Assembly: GCF_963576675.1 (NCBI RefSeq)
Contig: NC_088911.1
Span: forward strand, 81,745,256-81,809,255
Length of the DNA stretch: 64,000 nt
Direction of reading: 5' to 3'
From: Euphorbia lathyris
Lineage: Eukaryota; Streptophyta; Magnoliopsida; Malpighiales; Euphorbiaceae
In this document: in pieces, positions 26,237 through 61,960 of the stretch
How the letters are laid out: each line of letters opens with the position of its first letter
Position numbering within the stretch: position 1 is the first letter of the stretch
The notes under the pieces: generated by a model
The model's database searches: none
Seen by the model: the letters and a program-made list of their open reading frames with translations, nothing else
What the model was told of the DNA's origin: nothing
Position numbers and translations under genes: made by a program

Positions 26237-26237
26237 A

Positions 26238-35829: not shown

Positions 35830-36704
35830 GTTGTTGCAAAAGGTTTTTTGTTGCGAAATATGGACGTCAAGTTAGAGAATAAAATTTATCTTTTGCAACA
35901 ACATGTGTCGTTGCTGTTGGTTTTTTACATTTTGCAACAAGTTGTGGCGTTTTTTATAAATTTAGACTTTTTAAAACAACTTTTTACGTTGTTGTATATC
36001 TTACATTTTTGCAACAACTCATACCGTAACTATATATATTTCGTTTTCGCAACAATAAAATAAGAAATGTTAAATTTTGCAACAACTCATATTGTAATTT
36101 TTTTCAATTATATAATTCTTTAAAATTTATTATATCTATATTTAAATGTTAAATACTAATTAAAATTTATTACTATTGAAAAATAAAATAAGAAATGTTT
36201 TTTTTATATTTTGTAATTCAATTCATATTATATAATTTATTAAATATATTATATAATTTTAAAAATTCAATTTATATTATAAAAAATATGTATTTATTTA
36301 TTTTAATTAATTTAGTACTCTTCTTTTGCAACAACCTCTTTTGTTACTAAAATATTTGCTTTTTACGCAACCTCATAAAGTCGTTGTTATAAATGCTTTC
36401 ATTTACAGTAACGACGCATAGTCGTAGCTATAAATGCTTTGATTTATGGTAACAACATGTTGTTGTTGCTGTTAATGCTTACATTAAAAGCAACAACATC
36501 CATTTGTTGCTAAAATTACTTTCATTTACAGCAACAACGCTATTGTTGCCAAATTGATTACCTTTTTCAAAGAGAAAGGTAAGAAATTTATAGCAACAAC
36601 CTTTGGCAACGAGACAAAAACATTCGTTGCTAATGATTATATATTGCAACAACCATTTCTGTTGTTGCCAAAACTTGTTGCCAAAAAGCAATTTTCTTGT
36701 AGTG
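35830..36704. mobile_element. Truncated CACTA element end
   Basis: The right border reads TTTTCTTGTAGTG (ending 36704), the complement of a CACTACAAGAAAA terminus. Inside are many subterminal repeats of GCAACAAC/GTTGTTGC in both orientations. No matching left terminus or transposase is found, so the element is deleted on its left. Its terminus abuts a 38-bp stub of a copia LTR. Confidence 0.7.
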
Positions 36705-39343
36705 CAAATTAAAGACTATTAATTATAAGCTTATTATTTTAACACACCCCCTTAAACTTATAATTTTTTTATCTCTTAGTAACACAAAGAACAGCTCTTA
36801 ATCTGCTGAAATCTTCCAACTTCAAAGCTTTAGTAAAAATATCAGCAACTTGATATTTGGATGGTACATGCTTGAGTTGATTTTCTTTTCTTGCAATGCA
36901 TTCTCTAATGAAGTGATACTTGGTGTCAATGTGTTTGCTTCTATCGTGAAAGATCGGATTTTTAGCCAACGCAATAGCTGACTTATTATCAACAAAAACA
37001 TCATGCTCCATCTAGAACAAACTTTAAACTTTTTAACATTTGTCTCAACCATATTGCATGACAAACACAAGAAGCTGCTGCAACATACTCTGTTTCACAT
37101 GTTGAAAGTGTAACAATTGCTTGTTTCTTAGAACTCCAAGCAAAAACAGCAGTTCCCATAAAAAAACACAAAACCAGTTGTGCTCTTTCTATCATCAACA
37201 TCTCCTCCCCAATCACTATCACTGAATCCATACAATCTAAAATTGTTTTGGGAAGAGTAAAATAAACCATAATCCAATGTACCTTTAATGTATCGAAGTA
37301 TTCGTTTTGCTTCCTCCATATGAGTCAAAGTTGGAACCTCCATGTAACGACTAATGAGTCCAACTCCATATAAGATATCAAGCCTTGTACATGTCAAAAA
37401 TCTTAGCTTTCCAACCAACCTTCTAAACAAAGTTGGATTCACTTTTTCTTCAGCATCATGTTTTGACTTATTTCGACAATCCACTGGTGTAGAAGCTGAA
37501 TTGCATTTATCCATCTTGAATTCTTTTAAAATTGCTTTGTGATCACATCCTGTAAAAATTAAGTCATCAACATACAAACATACATGCATTGTTTTTCCAT
37601 CCCCATTCTCCTTAATATACAAAGCATGCTCATATGGACATCTTGTGAAGCCATTCTTCTAGAAATAGTCATCAATGCAAGAATATCAAGCCCTTGGAGC
37701 TTGCTTAAGGCCATACAAAGCCCTTTTTAACTTCAACACCTTATCTTCTTGCCCTTTCACAGTATAACCCAATGGTTGATTGACATAAACTTCTTCTTTA
37801 AGAGTTCCATTTAAGAATGCTGATTTGACATCCATTTGGTGAATTTTCCATCCTTGTTGAGCTGCCAAAGAAATAACTAATCGAATTGTCTTAATTCGAG
37901 CCACCGGAGCACAAACTTCTTCAAAATCAATTCCGGCCTTTTGAGAAAAACCTTTTGCAACAAGGCGAGCTTTATACTTCTCCAATTTTCCTTTGGCATT
38001 TTTCTTTATTTTGAAAATCCACTTTACTGCTGCTGCCTTTTTCCCTTTGGCAATGTTGTCAATTCCCAAGTGTCGTTCTTTTTTATGGAATTTATCTTTT
38101 CATCCATTGCTTGTCTCCATTTCTTTTCCTGAACAGCATCTTCAAATTGTACAGGTTCTGTATCAGCAAACAAACATAATAAAGTAGCATTATCTACTTC
38201 TTCAGTTTCTTCATAAATCTCGTTCAAGCTTCTCACTCTAGGTTGCCTTTCTGATGAACTTTCTGGGGATGAGTCTTGTCACATTTGTCTGAGATGTGGA
38301 AGGTGAATTCAGTGGTGTGATAATTACATCTTCATTTTGACCTGCAAAATCATCATTATATATAGGAAGAAAATCATAATTTTCATCTTCTGGAATCTCC
38401 TAATTCCAAAGCTTCGTCGGCTTATCTTGCGATTTTGAAGCAGACCCTGCGAGAAAAATGACATCCCTTCTTTTAACTCCCTCGGGTTGTCTCCGTATTC
38501 TAATTCTCCATTTCTATTATATTCTACAATGACAGTCACCATGTAATCAAATTTCTAAGTCAAAGAACGAAGGATTTGTTCTATCACAAGAACATCCTCC
38601 ATTTTTTCTCCATATCTCTTCAACTGATTGACAATTACCAAGGTTCTATTAAAGAACTCATCAATTTTCTCTGACTCCTTCATCTTAAGTTTCTCATACT
38701 CACTTTTCAAGGTTTGCAAATGCACCTTGACTACTTTATCTTTCCCCTTAAAGGAATTTTCGAGAATCTCCCATGCCTCCTTTGTTGTTGTTGTAGTAGA
38801 AATTTTCACAAACATATTCTCATCTAGACACATATGGATTAGAGAGAGAGCTTGTTGGTCCTTCTTCTTTAAATTCTTCAAATTTGCTCTTTGAGGAGCT
38901 ATCAATTCCGCCTCCTCTTGATGATCATATCTGACTTCTACCATTTCCCACACATCTTGAGAACCCAACAAAGCCTTCATTCTAATGCACCAATTATCAT
39001 AGTTTTCCTTTGATAATTATGGATATTTGTGTGGGATCATTCTGTTCATCATTGTAGAGAATTTTTGCTCGCTCTGATACCAATTTGTTGGATCAAATAA
39101 ATAAACTTTCATAGGTAACAGAGGAAGAGTATAATTGCTAGAAGAAAATTCTCTTGCCTTACTACTTGTATTGATATGTATTTATAGATTATAGACATGA
39201 CTCTTAGTAAACAACAATAACTCTCTATAAATACAGATGACTCTTTATGAAACAATACAGCTCTTGATAAATACAAAAATGACTCCTGGATAATACACTG
39301 AACCAAATTAAAGACTATTAATTATAAGTTTATTATTTCAACA
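36705..39343 (-). mobile_element. Truncated and decayed Ty1/copia element
   Basis: The right LTR (39086-39343, 258 bp) begins TGTTGGATC and ends TTTCAACA. On minus it is followed within a few bases by TGGTATCAGAGC (initiator tRNA-Met primer site). The left LTR is reduced to its last 38 bp (36705-36742), matching 39306-39343, and is adjoined by a purine tract (AAGTTTAAGGGGGTG). Coding remnants lie between. The left part of the 3' LTR is replaced by the CACTA end at 36704. Confidence 0.88.
36769..38980 (-). pseudogene. Copia gag-pol remnant
   Basis: Minus-strand pieces from 5' to 3': a UBN2-type gag segment (38980-38555); a short linker; the reverse-transcriptase start (38236-37686, with [11 protein letters not shown] and [13 protein letters not shown]); RT end with YVDDLIF and RNase H with SDSDWGGDVDDRKSTTGF (37622-37128); then the RNase H end with VDNKSAIALAKNP (37011-36769). 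Frameshifts separate them. Protease and nearly all of integrase are missing. The order is normal for Ty1/copia. Confidence 0.88.
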
Positions 39344-40182: not shown

Positions 40183-41837
40183 ATGGATTCTTCCTTATTG
40201 GATCATATCAAGAAGCAAGCAAGTTCCTTTTTGCAGAATAAATACAAAAATGCAAGGCTCGCTTTAACTGATGTTACTAAGGCTGAATTGTAAGTCTTCT
40301 TATCTTCTCCTGCTTTTTTTTTTTTTAAGAAAGGTCTATGATTAATTTAAGTAGGAGTGTTAGAATGGATTATGGTCATCATCATAATCATTATGTTATA
40401 TTATTTATATATCCCAAATAATTATATAAATACTACAATATCAAGAGATAATAATGAAAGTTATTTTCTAACTTTATGTATTAGCTTAACGTTTTGGATC
40501 AATTGATTTCTTGGCATGATATAAAAGCATCTTAGTTTAAGTGCCAACTCCTTTCATTAATTGAATTTTCAACACATAGTAATTTGTACACACTTCAGCC
40601 CAGAGAGCATTCGCTATGAAGATGCATCAGTGATGATAATAAAAGCTATTTTACTTTCAGAAAAGAAAGCTATATATTTTTTAGCTTATTTATGAGATTA
40701 AGTTTTTAGTTTAATGATTTTTTTGACAAACAAAAATGATGATTATGTCAAATGAGTCGTATCAATGAGATTATCTTTAGTATGGTGGTGTTAGAAATTA
40801 AAGCCCTAAATTATTTAAAAATGATATGATCTAATTTTGTTGTATATAAAGGTTGAGCGAGGAAGCAACAAATAATGATCCTTGGGGCCCTGATGCTAAA
40901 ACTATGACTAAAATAGCACAAGCATCATATGATGTGGATGATTATTGGAGAATTGTTGATATCATTCACAAAAGGTAAGATTTGAATAATATGTAATGAA
41001 TTGAAAATGAGTAAATAATAAGCAGATAATGAATTAAATGCAGGTTTGATGTAATTGATTGGAAGGAATGGAGGCAATCATACAAAACACTAGTACTTGT
41101 TGAATTCCTACTGACACATGGCCCCGAAGAAATGGCAGAAGAATTTCAAGGCGACTGTGATATAATAGAAGAGCTAGCCAAATTTGAATACATAGATGAC
41201 AAAGGGTATTCATTTATTTTCGTTTTCTAGGATTATTTAATTAGATTATTATATCAAACTAAACTAAGATGATTGAAACAGATTCAACTGGGGAAGAAGC
41301 ATGCAAAAAAGAAGTGAGAATGTAGTACAACTTCTAAATGGAGGAATAGCCCTAAAAGAAGCACGTTTAAAAGCTCTTAAAATAACAAAAGGAATTCAAG
41401 GTTTTGGAAATGTTGTTACTTCTCCAACTTCAACATCTCCTTCTTCGTCTGATTCATCAAGATCATCTGTTTCTTCCTCTTTTTTCTCTTATTCTCCATC
41501 CTCAACCACTTCTAGTGATTTCTCCAAAGACGATGACTGTTCCCAACGATCATCTTTTCACGACAAGTTTTCCTCTAATTCACCCAATTCTAAATCTAAA
41601 TCAAACCATGTCTGGAATTGTTCGCCCATCCAAGAAACGGGTTCTTTGCTGGATTTAGAAGATTGTGATGATGATCAAAACCACGATGAAGATGATGATG
41701 ATGACGATCTTGATGGATCTAATTTACTTACTCCAACAAAACATTATTATGGTGACAATGATAATATTAAGAGCTTTTCTGATGTGGGCAGGTTGATAAA
41801 GAAAAGATATGATCGTCAGTTCGATGTGGGTTACTAG
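40183..41837 (+). CDS. ENTH-domain protein (epsin-like), four exons
   Basis: Exons 40183-40289, 40852-40974, 41044-41205 and 41282-41837 have GT-AG introns and join in frame to 315 residues. Residues about 15-150 form an ENTH domain (EATNNDPWGPDAKTM, YWRIVDIIHKRF, WRQSYKTLVLVEFLLTHG, FEYIDDKGFNWG, VRQ-like end). ENTH domains bind phosphoinositides and bend membranes at clathrin-coated sites. The tail is rich in Ser (residues 178-235), then has LLDLE (253-257), which fits the clathrin-box consensus L-hydrophobic-x-hydrophobic-D/E, and an Asp-rich run. No ubiquitin-interacting or NPF motifs are seen. It appears intact and is the best-supported host gene in the window. Confidence 0.93.
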
Positions 41838-42299
41838 CTTAAGCTTAGATCCCATTAATTGTTTAGACACCCTTTAGGTGGTGTTTTTGTCACTTATACA
41901 CTAGAATTTGATTTCAAAACCTAGAGGTTTTTACGAATCAACTTAGACTTAATTAGTTTTTCTTTTCTTTTGAATAACAACATTTTTGTTATTATGGAGT
42001 TCATTAATAAGATAGATGTTTTTCTTAAGATGAACTGTAGTATATGCTGAGAATTGTAATGTTCATCACGAATACAATATTTTCCCTTTCTTTTTCTCAA
42101 AACTGATACTATCATTAGTTAAAAGGCCTAATTAATACTGTGCAAATTAAGCTCTATTTATACTATGTGTCTGTACATTTTTTTGTTCAATTATGTAATT
42201 ATATATTTAAAAAAAACATCATTAAATAGTTTTCTTTTTTTATGGGATTGGGGATATTAAATAGTTTTCTTAATTATTCAGCAAATTTATTTTTATTTT

Positions 42300-42355
<56 letters not shown>

Positions 42356-42470
42356 CTTTTCTTGTTACATTGTGCTGTAATACTTTGGGACTAAAGCGGA
42401 ATGTTTTTTTTCTAAAAAAAACCATGCATCAAATAGAATTAGAATACAAGGTTTAAAAAATAAAATCTCG
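41838..42470. other. 3' flank of the ENTH gene with a (TA)n microsatellite
   Basis: AT-rich, with no further gene. A (TA)n tract of about 50 bp spans roughly 42303-42352. Polyadenylation would be expected in the first few hundred bases, but no clear signal is singled out. Confidence 0.6.
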
Positions 42471-42474
42471 AGAA

Positions 42475-43690
42475 TTAGTATGCCACTCCATCAGTCCTGA
42501 CATAGAATATGATGCCCTTACAAGTTCATTGACAACACTATTCGCAGAACGACTAGTAAAAATGATACTAGCATCTTAAATGAATAAATCAATCTATTAC
42601 AATCATCAAGAACCAAGCTGTAATAAGCAATGTTGTTAGGCTCTGTAATAAGCAATGTTGTTAGGCTCGGACCGGTCCGACCGGTCGAACCGAGAATCGG
42701 CTAGGAAGCCGGTCCGAACCTGTTCGGTTTTTTCAATGCTGAAAAAACCGGAGAGACCCGGGGTTGGATCGGGACCCGACGGTCCGGTCTGGAACCGGTG
42801 TGACCCCGGGTCTGGTAAGGAAAAAAAATGGTGGGCTGTTGACATTTCAGGCGGGCAAAAAAAATTTCATGGTTCGATTTTAGGCGGGCGGCCAAAAAAT
42901 TTGGAAATGGGCTGGGCTTTTTGGGCAGGAAACAACAAAATTCGCGTCGCCCACGTCGTGCGGGTGCGCCCATAACCCGATGGTTAATCAATTGCACCCC
43001 TTTCCTGCGCGTGAGAGAGCATTTTTCCTAGTAATTGATTAAATGATTGTAAAGCCCATTTACTTATAAACTAGTTAAGTTTCTCCTTTCTTTCCTATGT
43101 GGGATGTGAATACTTGATTTCATTTTATCTTCTTCCAAACCATTTCAAGATGTTCACTTTGAACATCAATTTCTCATTCATTATTTGTCCGTTTTGAGTT
43201 TATAATATATTTTTAAAAAGATCTTATAGCATAGAATACGTTGATATATTTCAATTTATTCTGAACTTAATTTATTCGTTATATATTTAAGACTCAAATT
43301 AACAAAAAATAACAAACCAAAAATTGTTTATAATTTATTTTGGATGTATCTAATGTATAAAAATAATTTTAAATTAATTATATATATTTAATATATATAA
43401 ATATTATTTATTTATTACGTCATCCGGTTCTACCAATCCGAGCCATCCGGTCCGACCAAGTGACCCGTGACCCAGTCACCAATCCGGTTTGATGTCCGAT
43501 CCGGTTCTGATAACATTGGTAATAAGACCTAAAGACAGGTTGATCAAGATCTAAAACCACCTCCTCTGCATCAGTTTCAACAAAACAGCCTTTCATACTC
43601 TTTCTGTTGAGCCAACTTAGAGCTTCCCGAAAGCCCATAGCTTTCCCTACATGAGGCAAAAAATTCACCCTGCACAAGATACGCCTCAAT
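42475..43690 (-). pseudogene. RNase H (RVT_3)-type relic, probably LINE-derived, split by a hAT element
   Basis: On minus, 43690-43519 reads VGKAMGFREALSWLNRKSMK and then CFVETDAEEVVLDL, the middle of an RVT_3 RNase H domain. After the 866-bp hAT insertion, 42640-42475 continues with RSANSVVNELVRAS and YSMSGLMEWHTN, the usual end of that domain. No reverse transcriptase is visible. It could also be a stray host-annotated RNase H-like gene fragment. Confidence 0.7.
42653..43518. mobile_element. Non-autonomous hAT-type element
   Basis: This 866-bp element has an 8-bp TSD GTAATAAG (42645-42652 and 43519-43526) and short imperfect inverted ends (CAATGTTGTTAGG against CAATGTTATCAGA). Both flanks inside the ends are rich in CCGGTCCGACCGG-like sequence; the centre is AT-rich. 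No transposase. Left of it an extra GTAATAAG plus 17 bp of the element end is repeated (42620-42644). Confidence 0.82.
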
Positions 43691-44314
43691 GTAAAGTAAA
43701 ATTATATCATTTATTATTTTAAAATAAAATTATAAAATATTGAGTATTTTTTTTTTTTTCGCACCTTATCTCTAGTTGAAATTAGGCAAGCATATCAAAG
43801 TTACGTTGTATGAGAAACCATATCAATCTCAGACATGTTACTCATTTCTTTGTTTATAAAAATATTTTTCAGCTAGCTTTATATTTTTATTTTTGTTGTT
43901 CCTGCTTGTAGAAATTTATTCTAGAAGTTATTGAATCCTAAAGGAAATAAATTATTTAGGACAGATTTTTATCACACCTCAAGTTAGCAAATTTTCATTT
44001 TTTTCCTATTTTTATTTTACACAACAATCTAGAGAATATACGGATTTTGCCCCCAAATAGAGTACTTTTGAGAAATAAATTCTCATAAAGGTCCTTATTA
44101 AGCATTATTCTCACTGTGGGATTCTGCTAATCAGAATGAAATCGATAGCTAGTCTATCGGTTTCAAATTGTAAAAAAACCAGTAAATTAGCTACCGATTT
44201 CATAATAAAAAATAATTAATTTTTAAAAAAAATAAGTCAAACTGGTAGATTAGCTATCTGTTTCAATTATATATTGAATTTGAAATATAAAATCAGTAAA
44301 TATTTCAAAACTAG
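43691..44314. other. Spacer, no gene seen
   Basis: AT-rich sequence without ORFs. A loose repeat of TCAAA(C/T)TGGTAGATTAGCTA-like phrases lies near 44145-44265, just before the CACTA insertion. Confidence 0.5.
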
Positions 44315-45039
44315 CACTACAAGAAAACAGCTACTTAGCGACCGAAATTAGCGACCACGTGAAATTCAGTCGCTAAATTGCGACTGCTGCAGTCGCTAGT
44401 TTCTTTATATAGTCGCAAAAAGTGGCGGATCACTTAATGCCCATGTTACCACGTGTATTTTCATTTAGCACTGCACTCGACCTAAGATATAAAGTAATAA
44501 AAAAAACTATAATATAAATTAAAGAAAAACTAAAAAAGAAAAAATAAATATAAATATGACATTAAAAAAAGGAAAACCCTAAATTCTTTCTACTCTCGAC
44601 CTAGCCGCTCTCCTCTCTTCTTTGCGCTCTGAACTCGACCTAAGCCCCCTATTCTCTCTGCTCTGCTCTCCGTCCTAAGCCACTCTCCTTTCTTATTATT
44701 CGACCTAATCTCTCTCTTTTCAGACATCTGACCTGATCCATCTCCCTTCTTTACGGCTTCCTTCTCCGATTAACTCTAACTGAGCATCGTGGAGCATGCG
44801 ACATTTTTTTTCTGTATGCGACATTTTGATGTTTTGCTAATTAATTGTATTTGTGTGTGCGTTTTGTCTCTGAAATGATTTCCTAGTTTCAACGTAATTG
44901 TGGTTTTATCTTGGGAATATTGAACTTTTGAATTTGAAATCGTTGTTATGTTAATCCGTTGCTTTACCCATGAAATAGGTAATTAATTATATTCACTAAT
45001 GCAGCTAATTTCATTGATAAAACTAATGCTGCTAATTTC

Positions 45040-45279
45040 TCTTGAACAAATTGGAAATGAAAATATCTTGTTTATTGAAGTTAGGAAAACAATGATTACA
45101 AGAGGTAGATATTTATACAAAATATCTAATTTGTGTAACTAACCTTCCCTCTAGAATGTTCTTCTTCTAACAAACCCAAAACAGAAAATAACAAAAGAGA
45201 GAAAGATATAATCTTCTAAACTTGAGTGTATAGTTGCTTCTGTGAGCCTGCACTTCATTCTTCTTTATTTAATCCAACA
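45040..45279 (-). repeat. Copia 3' LTR (left)
   Basis: 240 bp, TCTTGAACAAAT to TTAATCCAACA on plus. It appears identical to 49917-50156. Confidence 0.95.
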
Positions 45280-45287
45280 TCCCCTCC

Positions 45288-48200
45288 TCAAGATGAAGTA
45301 GTAGGAATCGAAATTAACTTCATCTTGGATAAAGCATATACCATTTGGTTGGCAGTTAATGGCTTTGTGAACAGGTCTGCTAATTGATGAGCCGAATCCA
45401 CATAAGGTGTATTGAGAAAACCAGATGAAAGATGATCCCTGATAATGTGACAATCAATGTCGATATGTTTTGTCTTTTCATGAAAGACAGGATTGGCAGC
45501 AATATGGATTGCAGCCTGGTTGTCACAGAATAAGGGCATAGGCATTAATGGCACAACCTTGAATTCATTCGGAACATAAGTGAGCCATTTTAGTTCACAG
45601 GAAGTAGTTCCCATAGCTCGATATTCAGCTTCAGCAGATGATTTGCTGACTGTTCCTTGCTTTTTAGACTTCCATGACACTAATGCATCTCCCAAGAACA
45701 CACAATAACCCGTCACTGATTTCCTGGAATCTTTGCACTTAGCCCAATCCGAATCACAGTATGCCACTAAGTTAAAATCATTAGCTGCTCCATAGAAAAG
45801 CCCCTTATCCTTAGTACCTTGCAAGTATCTAAGAACATGGATAGTAGCATCCATATGCAACTGAGTTGGATTTGACATGAATTGACTCAATTGCTGTGTA
45901 ACATAGGAAAGGTCTGGTCTTGTGAAGCCTAAGTACAACAGCTTTCCAATGATCTTTCTGTACCTTGCCCCATCTCCATATAATTGAGATTCTGTATCCA
46001 GTTTCAACCCAGCAGGAAAAGGACTGGATGTTACAGAAACATTGGTTAAACCTGCTTCTAATAACAGATCATGAATGTACTTTTGTTGAGATATAAAAAT
46101 TCCTGCCTTGGACCTGGCAAACTCAACTCCAAGAAAATATTTAGCCAATCCCATATCCTTAATTGTGAATGCATTGTGTAACTCCTTTTTAACTTCTGCA
46201 ATGAGAGACACTGAATTTCCAGTGATCAAAACATCATCTACATACACAATTAAGCAGATGGATTCACCTTGCGTTTTCTTAGTGAATAGACAATAGTCAT
46301 GCACTGATTTCTCAAAACCAATGCTTAACAACTTGTGTGTAAAAGCTTTGTTCCATTGCCTTCCTGCCTGTTTCATGCCATAAAGGGACTTGGAAAGCTT
46401 GCAAACTGCCCCTGCTGGTACTTGATACCCTTCTGGTGCTTCCATATAGAGTTCTTCATCTATGGTGCCATGTAAGTAGGCATTATTGATGTCAATTTGG
46501 TAGATTGGCCATCCTTGAGCAGCAGCTATTGCCAAAAAAACTCTCACGGTCACCACTTTGGTAACTGGTGAGAAACTGTCGTAGTAATCTATCCCAAACT
46601 GCTGATTGTAACCTCTGGCAACCAATCGTGCCTTGTATCTGTCAACACTGCCATCTGGCTTGTATTTGACCCTGAAAATCCATTTACAAGTTATGGCCTT
46701 CTTTCCTGGTGGTAATGGTACCAATTGCCAAGTATCATTCAATTCTAGGGCTTCAATTTCCTGCTTCATAGCTGTAATCCAGTGGGGATTGAGTTTGGCT
46801 TCTTTATAGGTTTCTGGTTCATGAATCTTTTGTATGTTAGCTAGGAAACATGTGTATGCTGGGGCAAATGATATATTTGCAGGATCCATGACATTAGTAT
46901 AGTTGACTATGAAGTCATCCATCCACACTGGTTTTCTACTGCTTCTACTTGACACCCTGGTAGGAATCAATGGAGATGCAGCAATAGTAGTAGTGATTGG
47001 TAACTGAGAAGAACCAGACAATGATGGAGATATATCTATTGTAGTTGGCATATGGAGGTTCGAACTGTCAACTTCAGTTGATTCAAGTATTTCATGATGT
47101 GAATAGGATGAACTCCCTGAGGCATTTGAATCATCAAAATCCTTTTGAGAAGATGAATGTTGCTGCATATCTGGATGAGGTTGATAACTCAAAGGCGATG
47201 AAATATTCTCTGGTGTGATAAACACGGGCAAGACTGGTATGCAGCAATCATTAGAGGAGATATCTGTTGATGCCAGTTGTGGGTTTTGGTATGGAAAAAC
47301 ATGCTCCTGAAAAACAATATCTCTAGTAACATGTAGTTTGTGATCCTGTAGATCATAAACCTTGAAGCCTTTTTGCCCCATAGAACCTCCAAGGTAGATA
47401 CCTGTAATTGCTCTATCTGCAAATTTGTCTTTGTGAGGAACATTGTTAGTAAAATAGCAAGCACAACCAAAGATTCTTAATTGACCATAATCAGGTTTTA
47501 AACCATGAAGTAATTCATATGGACACTTCCAATGCAGAATCTTTGTGGGCGTCATGTTCAGCAAAGTAGTAGCATGACTGAGAGCTTCGCCCCAAAATTT
47601 TGTGTTTAAGCCTGCCTGATGCAGTAATGCTCTTGCCACAGACACTAAACTTCTATGCCTCCTCTCAACCACTCCATTTTGTTGAGGTGTATACACACAT
47701 GTTTTCTGATGAATTATCCCATAAGATGCAAACACTGTTTGAGTATTAGCTCCTGTGAATTCTAGGCCATTATCAGTTCTTATCTTTTTAACTTTAATGT
47801 CAAATTGAGTGTGAACCATCTTGATAAATTGATCTAGCAGCATATGAACCTGATCCTTAGATTTAAAAAGGAAAGTCCAAGTAGTTCTTGTAAAATCATC
47901 CACAAGTGTTAACATATATCTTTCACCACTTAGTGACTTCTTCTTGTAAGGACCCCAACAATCAACATGAAGTAATTCAAACTTTTCCATTGAAGAAATT
48001 GAACTACTACAGAAGGACTTTCTTGACATTTTCGTTTGTAAAAAAATTGAACAATCTTTCACCGATGTAGAATCGCATAAAGGAAAAGTATGCTTGAGTT
48101 TAATATGAGACATATGACCCATTCTATTATGCCAAAGCACAACATCAGATGGTTTATTTATAACTACAGAACAAGCTATATGATCTTTATTGACTTGAGT

Positions 48201-49802
48201 GTTGGCACTGAAATTCTTCAAGATATCCTGCTTGAATGACTCTGCTGTAAGTCTGTATAAGCCATTTTGCATCTCTGCTACTGCTATTAATCTCTTAGAA
48301 ACCAGGTCCTGCAATAAGCAGTGCTTAGCAAGAAACCAAATCTTCACTGCCGAATCTGATAGCAATTTGCTAACAGACAAGAGATTGTAGGTAAATTGAG
48401 GCATGTACATAACCTCTTTTATACACAACTTATCATTGAATATGACATCTCCAACATGAGTTACCTTTTGGTATGAACCATCAGGTAAATAGACTTTCCT
48501 GGTATCTGTCACCAGTTTTACATTTTGCATAATTTGTTTAGATTTGCACATGTGTGCAGAGGCACCTGTATCAATGATCCAACAAAAATCAAGACCAAAT
48601 GTATCAGTGAGAGAACTACCTGTACAGGTGCCAGCAAAAGCATTGCCTGCAAAAGCATTGAAAGCTTGTTCATGTACCATCTTCCCTTTGAGATACTTCT
48701 GGACTTCTTTTTGAACCATCATCTGCATCATTCTTTCTTTCTCATTCTGTGAGTCAGAATCAGAACCATCCAGAGGAGTATGTGTCTCCTTAGCCGCATA
48801 AGCATGAGCACTGGATGATGATTTACCACCTGAGCCACTAGATCCAGATCTGTTCCCCTTGAACCAATCTGGATAGCCTTTCAATTTGAAGCAAGTCTCC
48901 TTCTCATGTCCATCTTTGTTGCAATGGCTACAATGCTTATCATTTTTGGCCTTATTCTTGCCAAATTTCTTCTTGCCTTCACTAGTGCCTGCAAAATCTT
49001 TAGAAGTAGTGACAGCATTATGAACAAAAGAGGACTGATTATCTACAGCATTTTCCCTTTGTCTTTCGATGTTCAACAACATTGAAAAAGCTTTGTTGAC
49101 ATTAGGTAAAGGTTCTGAGATCAAGATTTGATCTCTAATATGATCATACTCGGGGTTCAATCCACTCAAAAACTGCATTAACTGTTCTTCATCACTATTC
49201 TTCTGTGCTTCTTTCCTGGCCTCACCACATTTGCAACTAAGACCTGGCTTTAAAATAGTTAATTCATCCCACAACCTCTTAGCTTTGCTAAAAAACTCAA
49301 CTAAAGTTTGATTTTCTTGTTTGAGAAGACTAATCTCTCTCCTGAGATAGAATATAATCGGTCCATTACTAGCTCCATGTCTTAGTTCAATTTCTTCCCA
49401 TAGATGCTTAGCAGTAGAAGCAAACATAAGATTCTCAGCTAGATCTTTAGTTAATGAATTTATCAGCCATGAAAATACTAATGCATCAGTTTCTTTCCAC
49501 TTCTCATATTCAACAGATTCAATATCATCAGGAGCACTTTCTTTTATAACAAAATTGAATTTCCTTTTAGCATTCAAAGCAATGATCATAGATCTTTTCC
49601 AGGTTATGTAGTTTTTGCCATTAAGTGGATTATGAACAAGAATTAATCCAGGATTATCAGCATTACCAGATGCGTTCTGGCTTGAGGATCCAGAATTTCC
49701 AGAATTTAGGGATCCGCCACCGACACCTCCTCCGCTGCCGGAATTAGTCTGTCGTGTCTCCTCTGTTTGTAGAACCTCAACAAAACTCCTTTGATCTCTC
49801 AT
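45288..49802 (-). CDS. Copia gag-pol polyprotein, 1504 residues
   Basis: A single frame from ATG 49802 to a TGA inside the polypurine tract. In order: Ser/Gly/Asn-rich N-terminus; UBN2-type gag (from about residue 50, LVHNPLNGKNYITWKRSM); zinc knuckle CSHCNKDGHEKETC; protease DTGASAH; GAG-pre-integrase HHCC region with HNRMGH; integrase core with HVDCWGPY, RTDNGLEF and NGVVERRHRS (the D, D and E are present); reverse transcriptase with VKYKPDGSVDRYKARLVARG and YVDDVLITG; and RNase H with CDSDWAKCKDSRKSVTGY, AEAEYRA and CDNQAAI. This order (integrase before RT) defines Ty1/copia. In the HHCC region the expected C-x2-C reads C-x2-F (CSIF), which may weaken integrase. Otherwise full length. Confidence 0.95.
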   Translation of the reverse strand: MRDQRSFVEVLQTEETRQTNSGSGGGVGGGSLNSGNSGSSSQNASGNADNPGLILVHNPLNGKNYITWKRSMIIALNAKRKFNFVIKESAPDDIESVEYEKWKETDALVFSWLINSLTKDLAENLMFASTAKHLWEEIELRHGASNGPIIFYLRREISLLKQENQTLVEFFSKAKRLWDELTILKPGLSCKCGEARKEAQKNSDEEQLMQFLSGLNPEYDHIRDQILISEPLPNVNKAFSMLLNIERQRENAVDNQSSFVHNAVTTSKDFAGTSEGKKKFGKNKAKNDKHCSHCNKDGHEKETCFKLKGYPDWFKGNRSGSSGSGGKSSSSAHAYAAKETHTPLDGSDSDSQNEKERMMQMMVQKEVQKYLKGKMVHEQAFNAFAGNAFAGTCTGSSLTDTFGLDFCWIIDTGASAHMCKSKQIMQNVKLVTDTRKVYLPDGSYQKVTHVGDVIFNDKLCIKEVMYMPQFTYNLLSVSKLLSDSAVKIWFLAKHCLLQDLVSKRLIAVAEMQNGLYRLTAESFKQDILKNFSANTQVNKDHIACSVVINKPSDVVLWHNRMGHMSHIKLKHTFPLCDSTSVKDCSIFLQTKMSRKSFCSSSISSMEKFELLHVDCWGPYKKKSLSGERYMLTLVDDFTRTTWTFLFKSKDQVHMLLDQFIKMVHTQFDIKVKKIRTDNGLEFTGANTQTVFASYGIIHQKTCVYTPQQNGVVERRHRSLVSVARALLHQAGLNTKFWGEALSHATTLLNMTPTKILHWKCPYELLHGLKPDYGQLRIFGCACYFTNNVPHKDKFADRAITGIYLGGSMGQKGFKVYDLQDHKLHVTRDIVFQEHVFPYQNPQLASTDISSNDCCIPVLPVFITPENISSPLSYQPHPDMQQHSSSQKDFDDSNASGSSSYSHHEILESTEVDSSNLHMPTTIDISPSLSGSSQLPITTTIAASPLIPTRVSSRSSRKPVWMDDFIVNYTNVMDPANISFAPAYTCFLANIQKIHEPETYKEAKLNPHWITAMKQEIEALELNDTWQLVPLPPGKKAITCKWIFRVKYKPDGSVDRYKARLVARGYNQQFGIDYYDSFSPVTKVVTVRVFLAIAAAQGWPIYQIDINNAYLHGTIDEELYMEAPEGYQVPAGAVCKLSKSLYGMKQAGRQWNKAFTHKLLSIGFEKSVHDYCLFTKKTQGESICLIVYVDDVLITGNSVSLIAEVKKELHNAFTIKDMGLAKYFLGVEFARSKAGIFISQQKYIHDLLLEAGLTNVSVTSSPFPAGLKLDTESQLYGDGARYRKIIGKLLYLGFTRPDLSYVTQQLSQFMSNPTQLHMDATIHVLRYLQGTKDKGLFYGAANDFNLVAYCDSDWAKCKDSRKSVTGYCVFLGDALVSWKSKKQGTVSKSSAEAEYRAMGTTSCELKWLTYVPNEFKVVPLMPMPLFCDNQAAIHIAANPVFHEKTKHIDIDCHIIRDHLSSGFLNTPYVDSAHQLADLFTKPLTANQMVYALSKMKLISIPTTSS

Positions 49803-49916
49803 CTTCCTCAGAATCAGAAATCACTCACACATACAGAGATGATCGGAAGAAAAATTAAGAAGGAGAAAAATGGAGTTTCAACAAGAAATTTTCTCAACCT
49901 AAAAGCTCTGATACCA

Positions 49917-50156
49917 TCTTGAACAAATTGGAAATGAAAATATCTTGTTTATTGAAGTTAGGAAAACAATGATTACAAGAGGTAGATATTTATACAAAAT
50001 ATCTAATTTGTGTAACTAACCTTCCCTCTAGAATGTTCTTCTTCTAACAAACCCAAAACAGAAAATAACAAAAGAGAGAAAGATATAATCTTCTAAACTT
50101 GAGTGTATAGTTGCTTCTGTGAGCCTGCACTTCATTCTTCTTTATTTAATCCAACA
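49917..50156 (-). repeat. Copia 5' LTR (right)
   Basis: 240 bp. On minus it starts TGTTGGATTAAA and ends TTCAAGA, immediately followed by the tRNA-Met primer site. A TATA-type box is not obvious. Confidence 0.95.
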
Positions 50157-50942
50157 ATTTCATTGATAAACTGCTTGGGGTTCGAATTAGCCTTTTCTAA
50201 ATTCCTAAAGTTATTGTTGCCAATATGCCTTAACATAAGGCATAAGAGATATTATTTTGTTCATTTTGACCTTAAGAAATTTGTATGCGGGGACTAGATA
50301 CCATGGTTGGTGACATTGAATTGAATTTAGCTATCTGATGGACAGAAGCAGAGAAGAGAAAAATTGGAGTTATTCTGAAAATATGACACAAAATAGTCAC
50401 TAATCCAATTAGATTGACTTCATTATGACAGTAATTTTTTTTTTTAAATTGAGTTAATGTTGACTCGTTTGACACAAACTCACTAATAGACGCACAAACT
50501 GGATAATCGCCGCCTCTAAAGTGTAACTTTCTGTGTGTGTTACTCCGAATTCAATTGCTTTCTACTTGTCTGGTTTCCTCCTTTAAACTCTCTCATTGGA
50601 TTGCTTGCAAAAACCATAATCATCCTTGTTGGATTTCTTATACTTGTTTTCAATGAGACCCACTAGAGGTTTCAAGAGAAGTAAAAAAGCAGGGAAAAAT
50701 GTTGACCAGAGTGTGTTGTCTGCTGATTTGTCTTCTCTCTAGCCTCAGCCTCTGCCTCGCCAGCCTTAGAGGTGTGGATTTATTGTTTATCAAGGCCAGC
50801 TTTGTGAAATTACATTATGTGAAATATATGGCTGGTATGGGGATCTTTAAACTGAGAAGAATGTTGCTATCAAACAACTTGATGAGTGGCTATCTCTCTC
50901 TCTATTAGTAATCAAACTCTGAATGATGTAAACTATATGCAG
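50157..50942. other. CACTA interior upstream of the kinase fragment
   Basis: No identifiable coding sequence. Short ORFs (50699-50908) have no family features. It may be captured 5' flank or intron of the kinase gene, ending in an acceptor-like ATGCAG before 50943. Confidence 0.4.
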
Positions 50943-52246
50943 GAATATCTCAAACAACAGCATCTTCAAGAAGCAGCAAAACAGGAACTTCTCAGGGTAG
51001 CAACATCTCTAGAAACAGCCTTTTTTCCGGGGGAAGTGGGGATGATCACTCTCCCTTTCCAAATGGCCAGATCTTACCCACTCCCAACTTGAGAATTTTC
51101 TCCTTTGTAGAACTCAGAGCTGCCACCAGGAATTTCAGGTCTGATACTGTGCTTGGCGAGGGAGGTTTCGGTAAAGTCTTCAAGGGTTGGCTTGATGACA
51201 AGACCACTGGAAAGCCTGGAACTGGAACTGGAACTGTAATTGCTGTTAAGAAGTTAAATTCTGAGAGCTTGCAAGGCTTTGAAAAATGGCAGGTAACTCT
51301 AACTCCAAAGGACTTTCATTATTGGCTACATTTGTTAGGAAAATAGGGAAATTAGAATAGCAAGTCATTGAAATGTGTGTATCTTCAATCAGGTCATGAC
51401 TTTTGGGTTATTATAATCACATTTGAGATTATTTTATACATCTTTAATTTCAAATCTGGTGGTTTATTGTAGTCGGAGATCAATTTCCTGGGAAGGCTTT
51501 CTCATCCGAACCTTGTAAGGCTGATAGGATACTGTTGCGAGGAAAAGGAGCTTCTCCTTGTTTATGAATTCATGCAAAAGGGAAGTTTGGAAAACCATCT
51601 ATTTGGAAGTAAGAACCCGATTAATATATTCTCTTCTGCAACTTCCTATAGATATACATTCTGATTATGCATTACTACTCATTTCAATCGATTCAGGGGT
51701 TCAACCGTTCAGCCACTTCCATGGGAAACACGGATCAAAGTTGCTATAGGAGCATCCCGAGGCCTGGCTTTCTTACACACATCAGACAAGCAAGTTATTT
51801 ATAGAGATTTTAAGGCCTCAAACATACTGCTTGATGGGGTGGCTGCCTACACTTCTTTAACTTATTATTTTCTAAATTTTCTTACATTCTTCTTTCTCTT
51901 TTATCCTATTTGATGTATGTTGCACGGAAACTCCTCTTCCATAATGTTTCCATGTTTCATATCCATTTCCTAGCTATGGTTTACAAACATGTTTCCCTAT
52001 GGCCGTTTCGTTTTCAGTTTCCATTCTAGTGCAACATATAATGCGAGTCTATGCTTGTGTTTTGGATGATGGCAATTGACACAAAAATGTCATTTTAACC
52101 TGTAATTTGTGACTTGTTGCAGTCATAAACAGCAATAGTTTCAGATTTTGGTTTGGCGAAATTGGGGCCTTCAGAGAGTCTATCTCATGTAACAACAAGG
52201 GTGATGGGAACATACGGCTATGCTGCCCCGGAGTATGTGGCGACAG
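50943..52246 (+). pseudogene. Captured receptor-like cytoplasmic kinase (RLCK-VII/PBL-like) fragment
   Basis: Exon-like segments 50943-51292, 51473-51608, 51697-51835 and about 52123-52246 retain introns, so the copy came from genomic DNA. They encode a Ser-rich N-terminal region, [13 protein letters not shown], the glycine loop [18 protein letters not shown] with the ATP-binding Lys, [12 protein letters not shown], the catalytic [11 protein letters not shown] (Asp present), DFGLAKLG and [14 protein letters not shown] stop precedes DFG in the last segment, the donor after ILLDG is abnormal, and subdomains IX-XI are missing. Kinases of this family act at the plasma membrane in immune and growth signalling, but this fragment cannot make one. 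Confidence 0.9.
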
Positions 52247-52259
52247 GTAAATATATGGC

Positions 52260-52564
52260 AGTCCTAGTGCATATCTGAATAATCCTGTAGAAGAACGCAT
52301 GAAATACAAGTATGATGTCGACAAAGAAATGACCCTATTGAAGTTTGTTGATGATGAGTGGGGTCCTGTTGGTAGCTTTAATTGGCTTATTACTCATGGA
52401 ACTTCAATGAGTCGCACGAACTCTTTGTTAAGTGGGGATGACAACGGTGCTGCTGCACGCTTTATGGAGGACTGGTTTGAAAAAAATGTTGCTGGATCTG
52501 TAGATGTAGCTTATGGAATCCCTCGAAGAGTCTCAAATATCACTCCGAACCTGCGGCATAATTG
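52260..52564 (+). pseudogene. Captured neutral ceramidase exon
   Basis: An open segment reads [20 protein letters not shown], then MTLLKFVDDEWGPVGSFNW, HGTSMSRTNSL and GAAARFMEDWFE, and ends at a GTAAGT donor. This is the mid-catalytic region of plant neutral ceramidases, which hydrolyse ceramide to sphingosine and fatty acid. The canonical zinc-ligand and nucleophile context is only partly covered. It begins 13 bases after the kinase segment's donor, too close for a functional intron, so the junction looks like joined genomic fragments. Identification is by recognition, not by search. Confidence 0.85.
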
Positions 52565-53740
52565 TAAGTTAGTAGTTTTCTACTTGAGATATGCTTTGAA
52601 AAGTGCTTTAGAAAGAGCAATCTGCCTTTGAGGAAACAATTTGATCTATCTGCTAGGGCTTTTACCTTGCATGATTTCCTTTAAGACAAACTCCACCGTG
52701 TTGTAGATTTCAACATGTTCACTCCCTTTATCAATCCAATGATGCCTATAACATATCATAAATTTCGTATGCAAATCTTTACAAAATTTCGTATGCTTTC
52801 TGGTGTTCTTTCAGTAGAAAGATATGTTTAACTTCTAGTGAGTAAGGGAATTATTTATTTGGGTTAGTTTACCTTTACATCTAAGTTCAAACATTATCGG
52901 AGTTGTCAAATGTAGTTGAGGTTGCTATATAAGCATTGCTCTGTTTCTTTGAATTTTATACTCGTTAATTGGTCTTAAAAGCTTCTATTTCAACACATTC
53001 TGGTCAGTTTTCACGTTTTTTGTGTTATGTTGATACTGGGATTCATAGTCATTTATCATGTTCCAATTTTGGTTGCTTATTGTTTTTATCCGGAGATCAG
53101 ATAACATATTGTCCGTGCTTTAGGAAAATTGACGATTTCAACTGTGTGAATTATTATTATGAATTTTTGTGTGTTCAACTGTGGCTTTATAAAGCTTTAT
53201 AAGCTCATAATTATGTGGTTCCTTGTTTATTAGGGTTGTTGTCATTGTTGCTGCTTGTTTCTCTTCTTGCGATCAGTTCAATGCGGGCAGAACCAATTTA
53301 TTAGCTGCTGTCAGAATTATGATGACCGGTATCGTAGAAAGTAAAAGACGAGCGATTGACAGAAGTTGGAGATACAAGAGCGATTATACAGACAAGTTAA
53401 TGTAGCTCTTATATATTTTGACATAACTTTATATGTTAACCTTTTTATGATATGGAATTTTGACCTCAAATATTAGCTTAATCTAGGTTATGATATCTTG
53501 TGAGTTATATTATATATTTTGATACATTTAAGCATCATATATTAATTCTTTGTAAATATATTTCTAGTTTTCATGAATATTGTTTATTGTTGTATGTTGC
53601 GGTTAATTTATTGTGAAGGTTAAAATATGTTTATAATTGTATTTAATAATCCTAATTGTAATTATAATTACTATCTCATATATAAAATTTATAAATTACA
53701 ATTAAATAAATAAACTGTCTAGCAAATTACGACGAATGTT
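52565..53740. other. CACTA interior, no recognised gene
   Basis: Intron-like AT-rich sequence. One open stretch (53223-53405, +) reads GRTNLLAAVRIMMTGIVESK and then KRRAIDRSWRYKSDY, looks protein-like and ends in TAG. I do not recognise the family; it may be a third captured fragment. Confidence 0.4.
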
Positions 53741-54079
53741 TCAAAATTACAGACAAATATTCCGTCGGTAAACCGATCAGATAATGGGTAGATCTAGCCA
53801 ATTAGCGACTGATTTTTAGTCGCAAATGTAGTCGGTAAAAGTTGCGACCACTCAGCGACTAAATCGAACAGTCGATAAAGTCTGCGACTATTGCCAGAAA
53901 TAGTCGTCGTTTCTCCAGCGACTAGCGACTTACCGACCGAATGATTTTGGTCGGTAAACCGCTAATTTCAGTCGGTAAACTGCTTTAGCTACCACATCAG
54001 CTACCAAAATTGCGGTAGCTAACTAGCAGTTTTCTTGTAGTGTAGTCCTCTAATGCTTTTTAAAATTTTAATTTAATTT

Positions 54080-58261: not shown

Positions 58262-61200
58262 CTACTCGGCCTGTTTATATAGGCGTAGATTCTCTAGATT
58301 CCAGGTGCGCGGGAGCTTTTTTCCGCTCATTTCTTCTATTTCAAAAGTCGATGGTCCCAGCTTCTTGGATACCCTGTAAGGCCCGAGCCAGTTGACGCCT
58401 AATTTGCCTTTGCCTTCTCTGGATTGTATTTTATCCGCTTTTTTCAAGACCAAGTCGCTCTCGTTGATTATCACCTTTCGCACCCTTCTGTCATGATACT
58501 TCTTGATTCTATTGCGGTACACTGCCATTTGCATGTAAGCTTTTTCTCTTCATTCTTCTACAGAATCCAATGCATCTCTAATGTTGATAGGATTTTGGGT
58601 GTCACAATAATAAATTATCCGATCTGTAGGCGACTTGATTTCAACAGGCAGGACTGCTTCGGCTCCATAAACCAGCGAGAAAGGTGTTTCGCCTGTTGCT
58701 GCCTTTACAAAAGTTCTGTATACCCATAGCATATGAGGTATCTCATCCGCCCAACATGTTTTTTTATCGCCTAGCCGCTTCTTGATTCCCTGAATCATGG
58801 CCCTGTTGGTAACCTCTGTCATACCATTCGATTGGGGATGATTTACAGAAGAAAAATGATTTTTGATCCCCATGCTTTCGCAATATGTTTTGAATTTTAC
58901 ACAGTTGAACTGGGTGCCATTATCAGTTATAAGCGTTTGTGGGATTCCAAACCGCATGATAATGTTCTCTCGTAAGAACTCGATCATTCGCTCAGGTGTT
59001 TGAGCGGTTACTGCCTCCGCTTCTACCCATTTGCTGAAGTGGTCGACTGCGACTATCAAGTACTTCCTTTTCCTTGTCGTTTCTGGGAACGGGCCCACTA
59101 TATCGATCCCCCATGTTGCGAATGGCCACGCCGTCATTATAGTGACTTGTTCGGCTCCGGGAACATGCTTTTCATTCGCATGGATTTGACAGCTGTGACA
59201 TTCCGCTACCATCTTCTGGGAATCCTCCACCACCTTTGGCCAATAATATCCCATCAACTTGACTTTTCTTGCCAACGCCGCGGATGCTTCATGTGCGCCA
59301 CAAATTCCTTCATGGAGTTCTCGCAGTACATAGTCTCCTTCATTGCGGCTAATACATTTCAACCATGGACATGTATATGATTTCCGGTATAAAGTTCCAT
59401 CTCGAATTGAGTATCTCGCTGACTGCCCAATTAGTTTTCTGGCTAAGCTTTTATCAACCGGCAAATCTCCATGTTCCAGATATTGGCGGATGGGCATCCG
59501 CCAATCTTCATCATCTTCCAGCTCTTCGATGACCATAATCTGATCGACTTTGAATGCTGGTGCTGACCTTATTTCCAAATTGCATGCTTTTTGACTCCAT
59601 GGTTCTCTACTCGCCGCTGCTTTTGCCAACTCGTCAGCCTTTGTGTTCTGGCCTCTCGGAACATGCACCATTTCCCAGACGACTCCCTTGTTTGTTAACT
59701 CCTGCGTCAGTCTGCCGACCACCTGATGGTACTTGACCAGATCCTCCTGTTTCACCAGATAATTTTTTGTGATCTGATTTATCATGAGTTTAGAATCGCT
59801 GTAGATGACCACTCTTTCTGGCGTAAGTTCATTAAGCAACTTCAATCCGCATATCATTGCTTCATACTCCGCGGCATTATTGGTAGTTTCAAATGTTAAC
59901 TTTGCCGCATAGTACAGGCGAATAACATCCGGTCCCTTAATGATGACTCCCAGTCCAGCTCCATCTGTGGACAATGCCCCATCTGTGAACATACTCCATT
60001 CTTCTTTTTGTGCTTTTGGACATTCGTCTTCATCCCACGTGAACTCATTCACGAAATCGGCAAGTACTTGACTTTTTAGAGCTGGTCTTCCTTCGTAGCG
60101 AATATCGAACTCTCCCAACCGAATTGACCACTCCATTAATCGGCCGAATGCGTCAGGTTTCTGTAGTACCTTTCGTATTGGAATTCCAGTTCTCACAATG
60201 ATAGTATGCGCCTGAAAGTATGGCTTTAACCTAGCCGCCGTGGTTATCACCGCGAGGGCCATTTTGTCCAACCTTGAATACCGAAGTTCTGCGTCTTTCA
60301 AGACTTTGCTCACATAGTACACTGGATATTGTTGCCCCTCTTCTTCCCGCACCATCACCGTGCATATCACCATACTAGTGACGGATACGTAAAGAAATAA
60401 ATCTTCTCCATCCTCTGGCCTGCTCATTAAGGGCGGATAGCATAGTAATCGCTTTATCCCCTCAAATGCTTCTTGACAATCCGGCGTCCATTCAAAGGAC
60501 TTAGATTTTTTGATGGCATTGTAGAAAGGTAGACATCTCCTAGCTGAGCATGATATGAATCGCCCTAATGCCACCAACCGCCCGTTCAGTCTCTGTACTT
60601 CTCTTATGTTCCTCGGTGTCTTCATCTCCATCACTGCTTTAACCTTCTCAGGATTCGCCTCAACTCCTTTGCCGCTAACAATGAAACCCAGGAACTTTCC
60701 TGCTCTTGCTCCAAACGTGCATTTCTCTGGGTTCAATTTGAGGCCATATTTGATCAGTACTTCCAGGATTTCTTTAATATCCTGCGGGTGGTCTTGCATC
60801 TTCTTGCTTTTAATGATCATGTCATCTACATAAATCGAGAAGTTCTCGCCTGATTTGTCTGAAAATATCTTGTTCATCATCCGTTGATATGTTGCTCCCG
60901 CATTTTTCAATCCAAAGGGCATCACCTTGAAGCAATAAGTCGCCTGATGAGTTATGAACGACGTATTGATCTCATCCGCCTTCTCCATTGGTATCTGGTG
61001 GTAACTGGATTTCACGTCAGTGAACGATAAAGCTTCAAATCCCGCAGTCCCATCTACCAATATATCAATGTTAGGTAGCGGATACATATCCTTCGGACAA
61101 GCTTTATTCAGATCTTTGAAGTCGACGCACATTCTGTACGTTCCATTTGGCTTTTTGACTAGCACCACATTGGCTAGCCACTCCGGATAGGTGACTTCTC

Positions 61201-61960
61201 GAATTGTATCTGATTCTAGCAAATCCGCCACTGCTTTTTCAATCGCCTTCTGCCGTTCTGGAGCATGTCCTCTCTTTTTCTGTCGCACTGGGGTTGCACC
61301 TTTGTCCACATTCAAACGATGGGTTGCTATATCTGGACTTATCCCCTTCAGCACTTCATTCGGAGCGGCGAATGCCGACTCGCATTGGATCAACACCTCG
61401 GTAATGGCTTTCTTCGTTTCCTCTGGAAGTCCTGTCGCTATCCGCACGTTCTTATCATTTGAGATGGCGAATAGTTCTGTTTCTCCTAACGCTTCAGCCG
61501 GCAACTTCTCATCAACTTTATCCTTTCCATCTGGCTTCGGTTCAAGTGACAATGTATAAGCTTGTTGAGATATAAGTTGATCCCCTTCAACAATGACTCG
61601 CCCTTGGTGTGTTGGCAAATGCAATGTCAAATGCTTCATTGAGATGAGCGACTCCATTTCCGACAGGAACGGACGCCCCAGAATTATGTTGTAGGCCAAT
61701 GGGAGATCAACAATTGCAAATTCTAGATCACCTCGCCATTTTAGATTCTTGTCGCCCATTTCTGTCTCCAACACCACCTGTCCACTTGTTTGAGATGATT
61801 GACCTCCAAAACCAGTTACATCCATGAACGTATGTTCCACTCGCTCGTCGTTAATTCCCAACTTGTTGAATGCAGTTCGAGTAATGACATTGCAAGAACT
61901 GCCTGTATCAATAAGGACCCGCTTAACGTCCCATCCTTCAATGGCCATCGTAATCACCAA
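58262..61960 (-). pseudogene. Tat element pol, one in-frame stop
   Basis: From 61960: protease with LIDTGSSCNV; reverse transcriptase with KDLNKACPKD and YVDDMII; RNase H of the Ty3 type; a second RNase H (SMFTDGALSTDGAG, NNAAEYEAM, YSDSKLM) as in the Tat lineage; integrase with an H2C2 zinc region and D-D-E core (WGIDIVGPFP, ITDNGTQF, GMTEVTNRAM). A TGA after 58550 separates the last 91 codons (58534-58262, integrase C-terminus ending YKQAE). The frame is otherwise open for over 1100 codons. Another TGA separates it from gag. Confidence 0.92.

What the first reader, a model, noticed from the sequence alone, without database searches (positions are those of the whole stretch)
44315..54042. 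Pack-CACTA that captured and joined fragments of two unrelated host genes
A CACTA element with matching ends and TAG TSD carries intron-containing exons of an RLCK-VII-like kinase (50943-52246) directly followed by a neutral ceramidase exon (52260-52564), and perhaps a third fragment (53223-53405). The 13-base gap between kinase donor and ceramidase segment suggests fragments joined at the DNA level. Capture of host genes by CACTA elements is established; this kinase-ceramidase pairing is, to my knowledge, not described.
Basis: partly seen in the sequence, partly recalled or inferred. Interest (0 to 1): 0.8.

Follow-up and report, generated by a model that had tools for sequence, protein, structure and literature searches.

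The report
Transposon carrying two captured gene pieces
In a plant that matches caper spurge, a jumping DNA element picked up part of one gene, then had part of a second gene patched into the middle of it, and copied the combination around the genome; related elements that look like the intermediate steps are still present.

Summary
44315-54042 is a non-autonomous CACTA element (35-nt ends, TAG duplication, terminal GTCGC repeats, no transposase found). It carries a kinase (PIX13-like, RLCK-VII) fragment and neutral-ceramidase pieces, plus a Ty1/copia element (45040-50156) that inserted later. Protein matches identify the host as Euphorbia lathyris.

Both parent genes lie on other chromosomes: kinase at C3:52.07 Mb, ceramidase at C6:35.48 Mb. 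A second ceramidase piece (50765-50872) lies upstream of the kinase, so the kinase sits inside the ceramidase in place of 843 bp, with a 5-nt microhomology (TATCA) at one joint. The joints are shared: each is kept in 8 of 11 other copies, and the copies occupy at least eight sites. The "third fragment" is the family's 3' region, not a recognisable host gene.

Related elements suggest an order: ceramidase only (C4:91.1 Mb); ceramidase plus kinase with the older left end (C1:119.7 Mb); left end swapped and amplified; copia insertion in this copy. The coding pieces decay about neutrally. A public protein model splices the neighbouring ENTH gene into the captured kinase; whether it is transcribed is untested. 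Known kind (Pack-CACTA, compare Tgm-Express1), unusually good assembly record.

The parts
44315..44349 (+). Left terminal inverted repeat (CACTACAAGAAAAC...)
   Evidence: inverted pair I1, 35 nt, 89%; exact CACTACAAGAAAA
54008..54042 (-). Right terminal inverted repeat
44312..44314 (.). Target-site duplication TAG (left)
54043..54045 (.). Target-site duplication TAG (right)
44315..50763 (+). Left module of the element (interrupted by the copia insertion); a similar left module carries a different cargo in L051
45040..50156 (-). Nested Ty1/copia element, absent from the 8 other copies that have this left module: LTRs 45040-45279 and 49917-50156 (240 nt, identical), duplication ATTTC, 1504-aa ORF 45288-49802
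50765..50872 (+). Ceramidase piece 1 (parent L021 3432-3539)
50868..50872 (+). Junction 1, 5-nt microhomology TATCA between ceramidase and kinase
50873..52252 (+). Captured kinase fragment with introns (parent L020); exons 50943-51292, 51473-51608, 51697-51839, 52123-52246
52126..52128 (+). Premature TAA in kinase exon 4, shared with the C9 copy
52247..52259 (+). Junction 2 kinase/ceramidase, present in 8 of 11 other copies (one of them a variant 2 nt shorter)
52252..52785 (+). Ceramidase piece 2 (parent L021 4383-4940): exon 52260-52562 and following intron
52789..52844 (+). Ceramidase piece 3 (parent L021 5267-5321)
   Evidence: 91% over 56 nt
52845..54042 (+). Right module of the element, including the supposed third fragment 53223-53405
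40183..41837 (+). Neighbouring host ENTH-domain gene (315 aa); a public protein (P0009) splices it at 41514 to the captured kinase at 50985

Best explanation
A non-autonomous Pack-CACTA element whose cargo was built in steps. (1) A CACTA element acquired part of the neutral ceramidase gene of chromosome C6. (2) A break inside that ceramidase cargo was filled with a 1.3-kb stretch of the PIX13-like kinase gene of C3, replacing 843 bp of ceramidase; the TATCA microhomology at one joint points to template switching during repair. (3) The left end was exchanged for that of another member of the family. (4) Transposase supplied in trans spread the finished chimera to at least eight sites. (5) A Ty1/copia element then inserted into this copy. 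The cargo is not maintained as a protein: it decays about neutrally. Its likely present effect is to supply exons and splice sites that neighbouring genes may pick up. Shown here: ends, duplications, parents, shared joints, nesting, candidate intermediates, near-neutral decay. Inferred: repair as the patching mechanism, the exact order, trans mobilisation, any transcript.
For: Ends and TSD. Exact 3-bp TSD in 7 of the 9 other copies with both ends located. Terminal enrichment of GCGAC/GTCGC: 13 in 600 terminal bp, 4 in 4011 inner bp. Parents on C3 and C6, with homology switching at 52252; P0001 matches the C3 locus piece by piece and at 100% over residues 271-420. Ceramidase on both sides of the kinase. 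TATCA joint, chance of 5 nt or more 0.008. Junction 1 in 8 of 11 and junction 2 in 8 of 11 other copies. Ceramidase-only element on C4. The C1 copy has the C4 element's type of left end (90% over 651 nt) and longer ceramidase, 96% to the C4 element over 476 nt, plus the kinase. Left module shared with a different cargo. Private changes after masking misaligned ends: kinase 11 synonymous, 34 nonsynonymous, 0 stop; ceramidase 6, 12, 2. Copia empty site in the 8 other copies with this left module.
Against: Divergence from the parents does not clearly separate the two captures in time: fixed noncoding differences are 18 of 531 for the kinase and 9 of 224 for the ceramidase, and distance ranges overlap (kinase noncoding 0.042-0.065, ceramidase intron 0.051-0.081); the order rests on nesting and on the C4 and C1 elements. 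The C4 element shares no derived change with the window family in their 72-bp overlap; in the larger comparison with C1 the counts are 18 shared, 31 C4-only, 16 C1-only of 522, not decisive, so C4 could be a separate capture. C1 itself lacks about 12 nt of ceramidase that the window family keeps, so it is a sister of the intermediate, not the ancestor. Microhomology at junction 2 is ambiguous (GGT or GTAAAT). Kinase copy-to-copy pN/pS is below 1 in 13 of 15 pairs (0.39-1.45), slightly against pure neutrality. Among the scored matches no transposase lies within about 20 kb of a family end (compared by eye).
Confidence: 0.82

Rival explanations
1. The cargo arose by fusion of neighbouring element insertions, each already carrying one gene piece (the tandem-insertion and remobilisation model for Pack-CACTA), rather than by gap filling.
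For: That model is the published one for Pack-CACTA (review passages; Gisby and Catoni section 9). The left-module exchange at about 50763 fits it: in L051 a similar left module ends at the same bases before a different cargo.
Against: It does not easily give a kinase flanked on both sides by the same ceramidase gene in the right order with 843 bp missing; the printed joints show no element end between the pieces.
Confidence: 0.2
2. The element is a transcribed chimeric gene under selection (kinase-based product), not only decaying cargo.
For: Public protein models exist for this locus (P0009) and apparently for the C6 and C8 copies (P0003, P0055; the last two named isoform X2). Several copies carry a 5' exon (MLEFVPEIEG...) that P0003 joins to the kinase. 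Kinase copy-to-copy pN/pS is below 1 in 13 of 15 pairs.
Against: Private changes match neutral expectation, kinase exons have stops in 4 of 12 copies, and copies carry different deletions. The window copy has lost the element's 5' exon.
Confidence: 0.08
3. The kinase and ceramidase pieces are an assembly artefact or chance similarity.
For: None found beyond one homopolymer difference (four G against five) at exon 3 between this sequence and that implied by P0009.
Against: The unit recurs at 96-98% on several chromosomes with distinct target duplications.
Confidence: 0.01

Closest known systems
Tgm-Express1 of soybean (CACTA; Zabala and Vodkin 2007, PMC1947982; abstract, background and discussion read)
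   Same: Non-autonomous CACTA element carrying intronic and exonic pieces of several unrelated host genes, which are spliced into transcripts of a host gene.
   Different: Tgm-Express1 lies in an intron, with 12 distinct transcripts reported; here the element lies about 2.5 kb downstream of the host stop codon and only a protein model suggests fusion. Here one captured gene is nested in another and related elements resembling intermediates survive.
Pack-CACTA / Pack-TYPE elements of Arabidopsis, rice and maize (Gisby and Catoni 2022, PMC8903248, abstract and sections 9-11 read; Catoni 2019 not held, known here only through these and passages of the review PMC13317346)
   Same: CACTA ends, no transposase, host gene pieces from more than one locus, amplification, fusion of family members.
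   Different: Here a microhomology joint and nested cargo point to a repair patch inside earlier cargo, not only to fusion of adjacent insertions.
Pack-TIRs of animals formed by gap filling and template switching (PMC8277862, passages read)
   Same: Microhomology at breakpoints, filler from another locus, later amplification of some.
   Different: Animal elements; there the filler interrupts the transposon, here it interrupts earlier captured cargo.

Membership tests
CACTA (EnSpm) transposon | Terminal inverted repeats beginning CACTA | tested here: met
   35 nt, 89%
CACTA (EnSpm) transposon | 3-bp target-site duplication | tested here: met
   TAG/TAG in the window; exact in 7 of 9 other copies with both ends located, not in L017 or L018
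CACTA (EnSpm) transposon | Repeated short motifs near the ends | tested here: met
   GCGAC/GTCGC 13 in 600 terminal bp against 4 in 4011 inner bp
Pack-CACTA | No transposase of its own | tested here: met
   No transposase domain in the 8 stop-to-stop readings scanned, of 15 readings of 45 aa or more from the three stretches outside copia and most of the cargo; the only match was a sub-cut-off integrin domain at 0.0087
Pack-CACTA | Captured host gene pieces with parent genes elsewhere in the genome | tested here: met
   Parents on C3 and C6
Pack-CACTA | Mobilised in trans by a related autonomous element | tested here: inconclusive
   150 PF02992 matches, the number scored of 412 candidates, but no autonomous element with matching ends identified
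Pack-CACTA | Multiple copies at unrelated sites | tested here: met
   10 copies with both ends including the window; three of them (L012, L013, L014) share flanks and count as one insertion, so eight sites

The most novel reading that the evidence does not exclude
The host ENTH gene at 40183-41837 is being extended into a new gene: its last exon uses an internal donor at 41514 to splice, over 9.5 kb of mostly transposon DNA, to the captured kinase at 50985, making an ENTH-kinase fusion protein, while sister copies express truncated kinases from an element-borne 5' exon that could interfere with the parent PIX13-like kinase.
Probability: 0.12. Interest if true: 0.7.

Novelty: new member of a known kind. 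Interest (0 to 1): 0.48.

Why it matters
How plant transposons put several unrelated gene pieces together is largely inferred from finished elements. Here one genome appears to keep successive stages, an early element with one gene piece, one with the second piece patched in, and later copies with a new end, so models of gap filling and of element fusion can be tested base by base. It also shows public kinase protein models (P0009, P0003, P0055) that carry transposon cargo.

Tried and rejected
Third fragment 53223-53405 as a host gene: rejected; no Pfam match above a curated cut-off (the best was Esterase_PHB at 0.067), one of 25 protein candidates matched and it was the query's own entry, and the region is shared with kinase-free family members.

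Dating the order of capture by divergence: no clear resolution. The whole-alignment distances are larger for the ceramidase (0.067-0.095, 9 copies) than for the kinase (0.032-0.054, 12 copies), which would fit an older ceramidase capture, but the cleaner alignment and noncoding sites overlap. A first count of private changes (kinase 14, 44 and 4 stops) included the misaligned end of copy C6c; masked, it is 11, 34 and 0. Finding the autonomous partner: inconclusive (distances compared by eye, nearest about 25 kb). One search used a reading frame off by two bases and found nothing; it says nothing about ceramidases. Counting family members by the 3' region alone was not possible (not answered; likewise the right end). 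Literature: no paper holding E. lathyris, genome, transposable and CACTA together (0 papers); a search for CACTA, ceramidase, kinase and captured gave 2 papers, a zebrafish and a wasp study by their listings.
Full report
WHERE IT IS. The window lies in a 1.02-Gb genome of 33 contigs, at C2:81745256-81809255. The host was identified by protein matches: P0009, a public Euphorbia lathyris protein, is reproduced by this window's exons from the ENTH start to the end of kinase exon 2. The contig length given for P0009 differs slightly from C2, so it probably comes from another version of the assembly; at exon 3 the window has four G where the other copies with that stretch and the kinase parent have five, and P0009 reads as if there were five.

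THE ELEMENT. 44315-54042 has 35-nt inverted ends, 89% complementary, a TAG duplication, and terminal enrichment of GCGAC/GTCGC (13 in 600 terminal bp against 4 in 4011 inner bp). No transposase domain was found in the 8 stop-to-stop readings scanned, of 15 of at least 45 aa. 45040-50156 is a Ty1/copia element with identical 240-nt LTRs, a 5-bp duplication ATTTC and an unbroken 1504-aa ORF; the 8 other copies with this left module show the empty site.

THE CARGO AND ITS PARENTS. Kinase exons match RLCK-VII kinases (BIK1 1.1e-87; E. lathyris PIX13-like P0001, 94% identity). The ceramidase exon matches neutral ceramidases (PF04734 5e-25; solved structure 4wgk 1.1e-10). In the genome the kinase half has a relative at C3:52073422-52074651 and the ceramidase half one at C6:35483882-35484207, with homology switching at query base 1310, window 52252. 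P0001 matches the C3 locus piece by piece from residue 21 and at 100% over residues 271-420. Of 24 matches to the ceramidase family, 13 fall in two loci that cover most of the profile, C6:35.48 Mb and C7:65.85 Mb, 9 in copies of this element and 2 in the C4 element. Whether the C6 gene is fully intact was not tested.

NESTING. Comparing the ceramidase parent (L021) with the element gives three pieces: window 50765-50872, 52252-52785 and 52789-52844. The kinase occupies the place of L021 3540-4382 (843 bp). At junction 1 both parents share TATCA; random breakpoints give 5 nt or more in 0.8% of 200,000 trials. Junction 2 is less clear (GGT or GTAAAT).

COPIES. Seven places, this one included, hold the whole kinase-ceramidase unit, or all but two bases of it, at 96-100%, and others hold parts; the tool scores only the best candidates, so counts are lower bounds. 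Of 11 other copies fetched, 8 keep junction 1 and 8 keep junction 2 at the same bases, one of the latter as a variant 2 nt shorter. Nine have both ends located; 7 of these 9 have exact 3-bp duplications. L012, L013 and L014 share about 99% identical flanks over some 2 kb on each side and count as one insertion, so there are eight distinct sites among ten two-ended copies including the window. L016 and L019 have a right end but no left end of the pattern searched in the fetched stretch.

ASSEMBLY ORDER. An element at C4:91.1 Mb carries ceramidase L021 2686-3999 (95%, 94% and 91% in three pieces) with no kinase match; its ends are degenerate. The C1 copy (L010) has the same type of left end as the C4 element (90% over 651 nt), ceramidase 2883-3539 (96% to the C4 element over 476 nt, 91% to the parent), the kinase, and ceramidase 4383-4861. 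The window and its closer relatives have a different left module; L051 has a similar one with another cargo, ending at the same bases. In the 108-bp ceramidase piece the C1 copy shares some changes with the window family but lacks one, which fits an earlier branch; it also lacks about 12 nt that the window family keeps, so it is a sister of the intermediate and not the ancestor. Against this: the C4 element shares no derived change with the window family in a 72-bp overlap, and the three-way count with C1 (18 shared, 31 C4 only, 16 C1 only, of 522) does not decide between one capture and two. Divergence does not clearly date the captures apart.

IS THE CARGO USED? With misaligned ends masked, private changes in 9 copies of the kinase are 11 synonymous, 34 nonsynonymous and 0 stops, and in 7 copies of the ceramidase 6, 12 and 2 (left out: C4 and C6b as duplicates of C6a, C3p as short for the kinase, and copies lacking the ceramidase exon). 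With about 3.3 nonsynonymous sites per synonymous site in the kinase and 3.7 in the ceramidase this is close to neutral. Pairwise kinase ratios between six copies are 0.39-1.45, below 1 in 13 of 15 pairs, so weak past constraint is not excluded. Comparisons with the kinase parent give 0.25-0.50, as expected since the parent branch is under selection. In-frame stops in the kinase exons were seen in 4 of 12 copies (window and C9, which share one, C2b and C3p). Three public protein models nevertheless use the cargo: P0009 (this locus, ENTH plus kinase), P0003 (best fit the C6 copy L015) and P0055 (its contig has the length of C8 and its 3' part fits L017 best). That several isoforms in such models usually reflect transcript reads is recalled, not tested.

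COMPARISON. It meets the tested features of a CACTA element and of a Pack-CACTA; mobilisation in trans was not settled. The closest case is Tgm-Express1. Pack-CACTA elements with pieces from several loci are known, and fusion of neighbouring insertions is the published model. Gap filling with microhomology is published for animal Pack-TIRs. What is unusual is the nested cargo and the surviving related elements.

VERDICT. Real, correctly read in the main, a new member of a known kind with a good historical record.

Noticed in passing
window 40183-51910: Public protein P0009 fuses the host ENTH gene (native stop at 41837) to the captured kinase through a GT-AG junction 41515/50984; possibly a read-through transcript, possibly an annotation error.
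   Followed up: partly
window 36692-36704: Another CACTA-type end (CACTACAAGAAAA on the minus strand) with many TTGTTGC-like repeats inside, abutting a stretch (36705-36744) repeated at 39304-39343 next to copia-like ORFs; its other end was not sought.
   Followed up: no
window 5439-8462 and 19783-22699: Roughly 3-kb direct duplication, 94.5% identical, with overlapping ORFs; an ORF that looks like a C2H2 zinc finger is also duplicated (1403-1985 and 25661-26237, 97%).
   Followed up: no
L051 (C7:83.8 Mb) and C7:83.74, C7:86.0, C6:1.25 Mb: A similar left module of the CACTA family recurs in four places; in L051, the one read, it carries a different, unidentified cargo.
   Followed up: partly
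L012, L013, L014: Three copies on C6 and C4 share about 99% identical flanks on both sides, so the element was carried along in a larger duplication or transposon.
   Followed up: partly
window 26624-31060 and 58550-63880: Further retrotransposon-like polyprotein ORFs on the minus strand.
   Followed up: no
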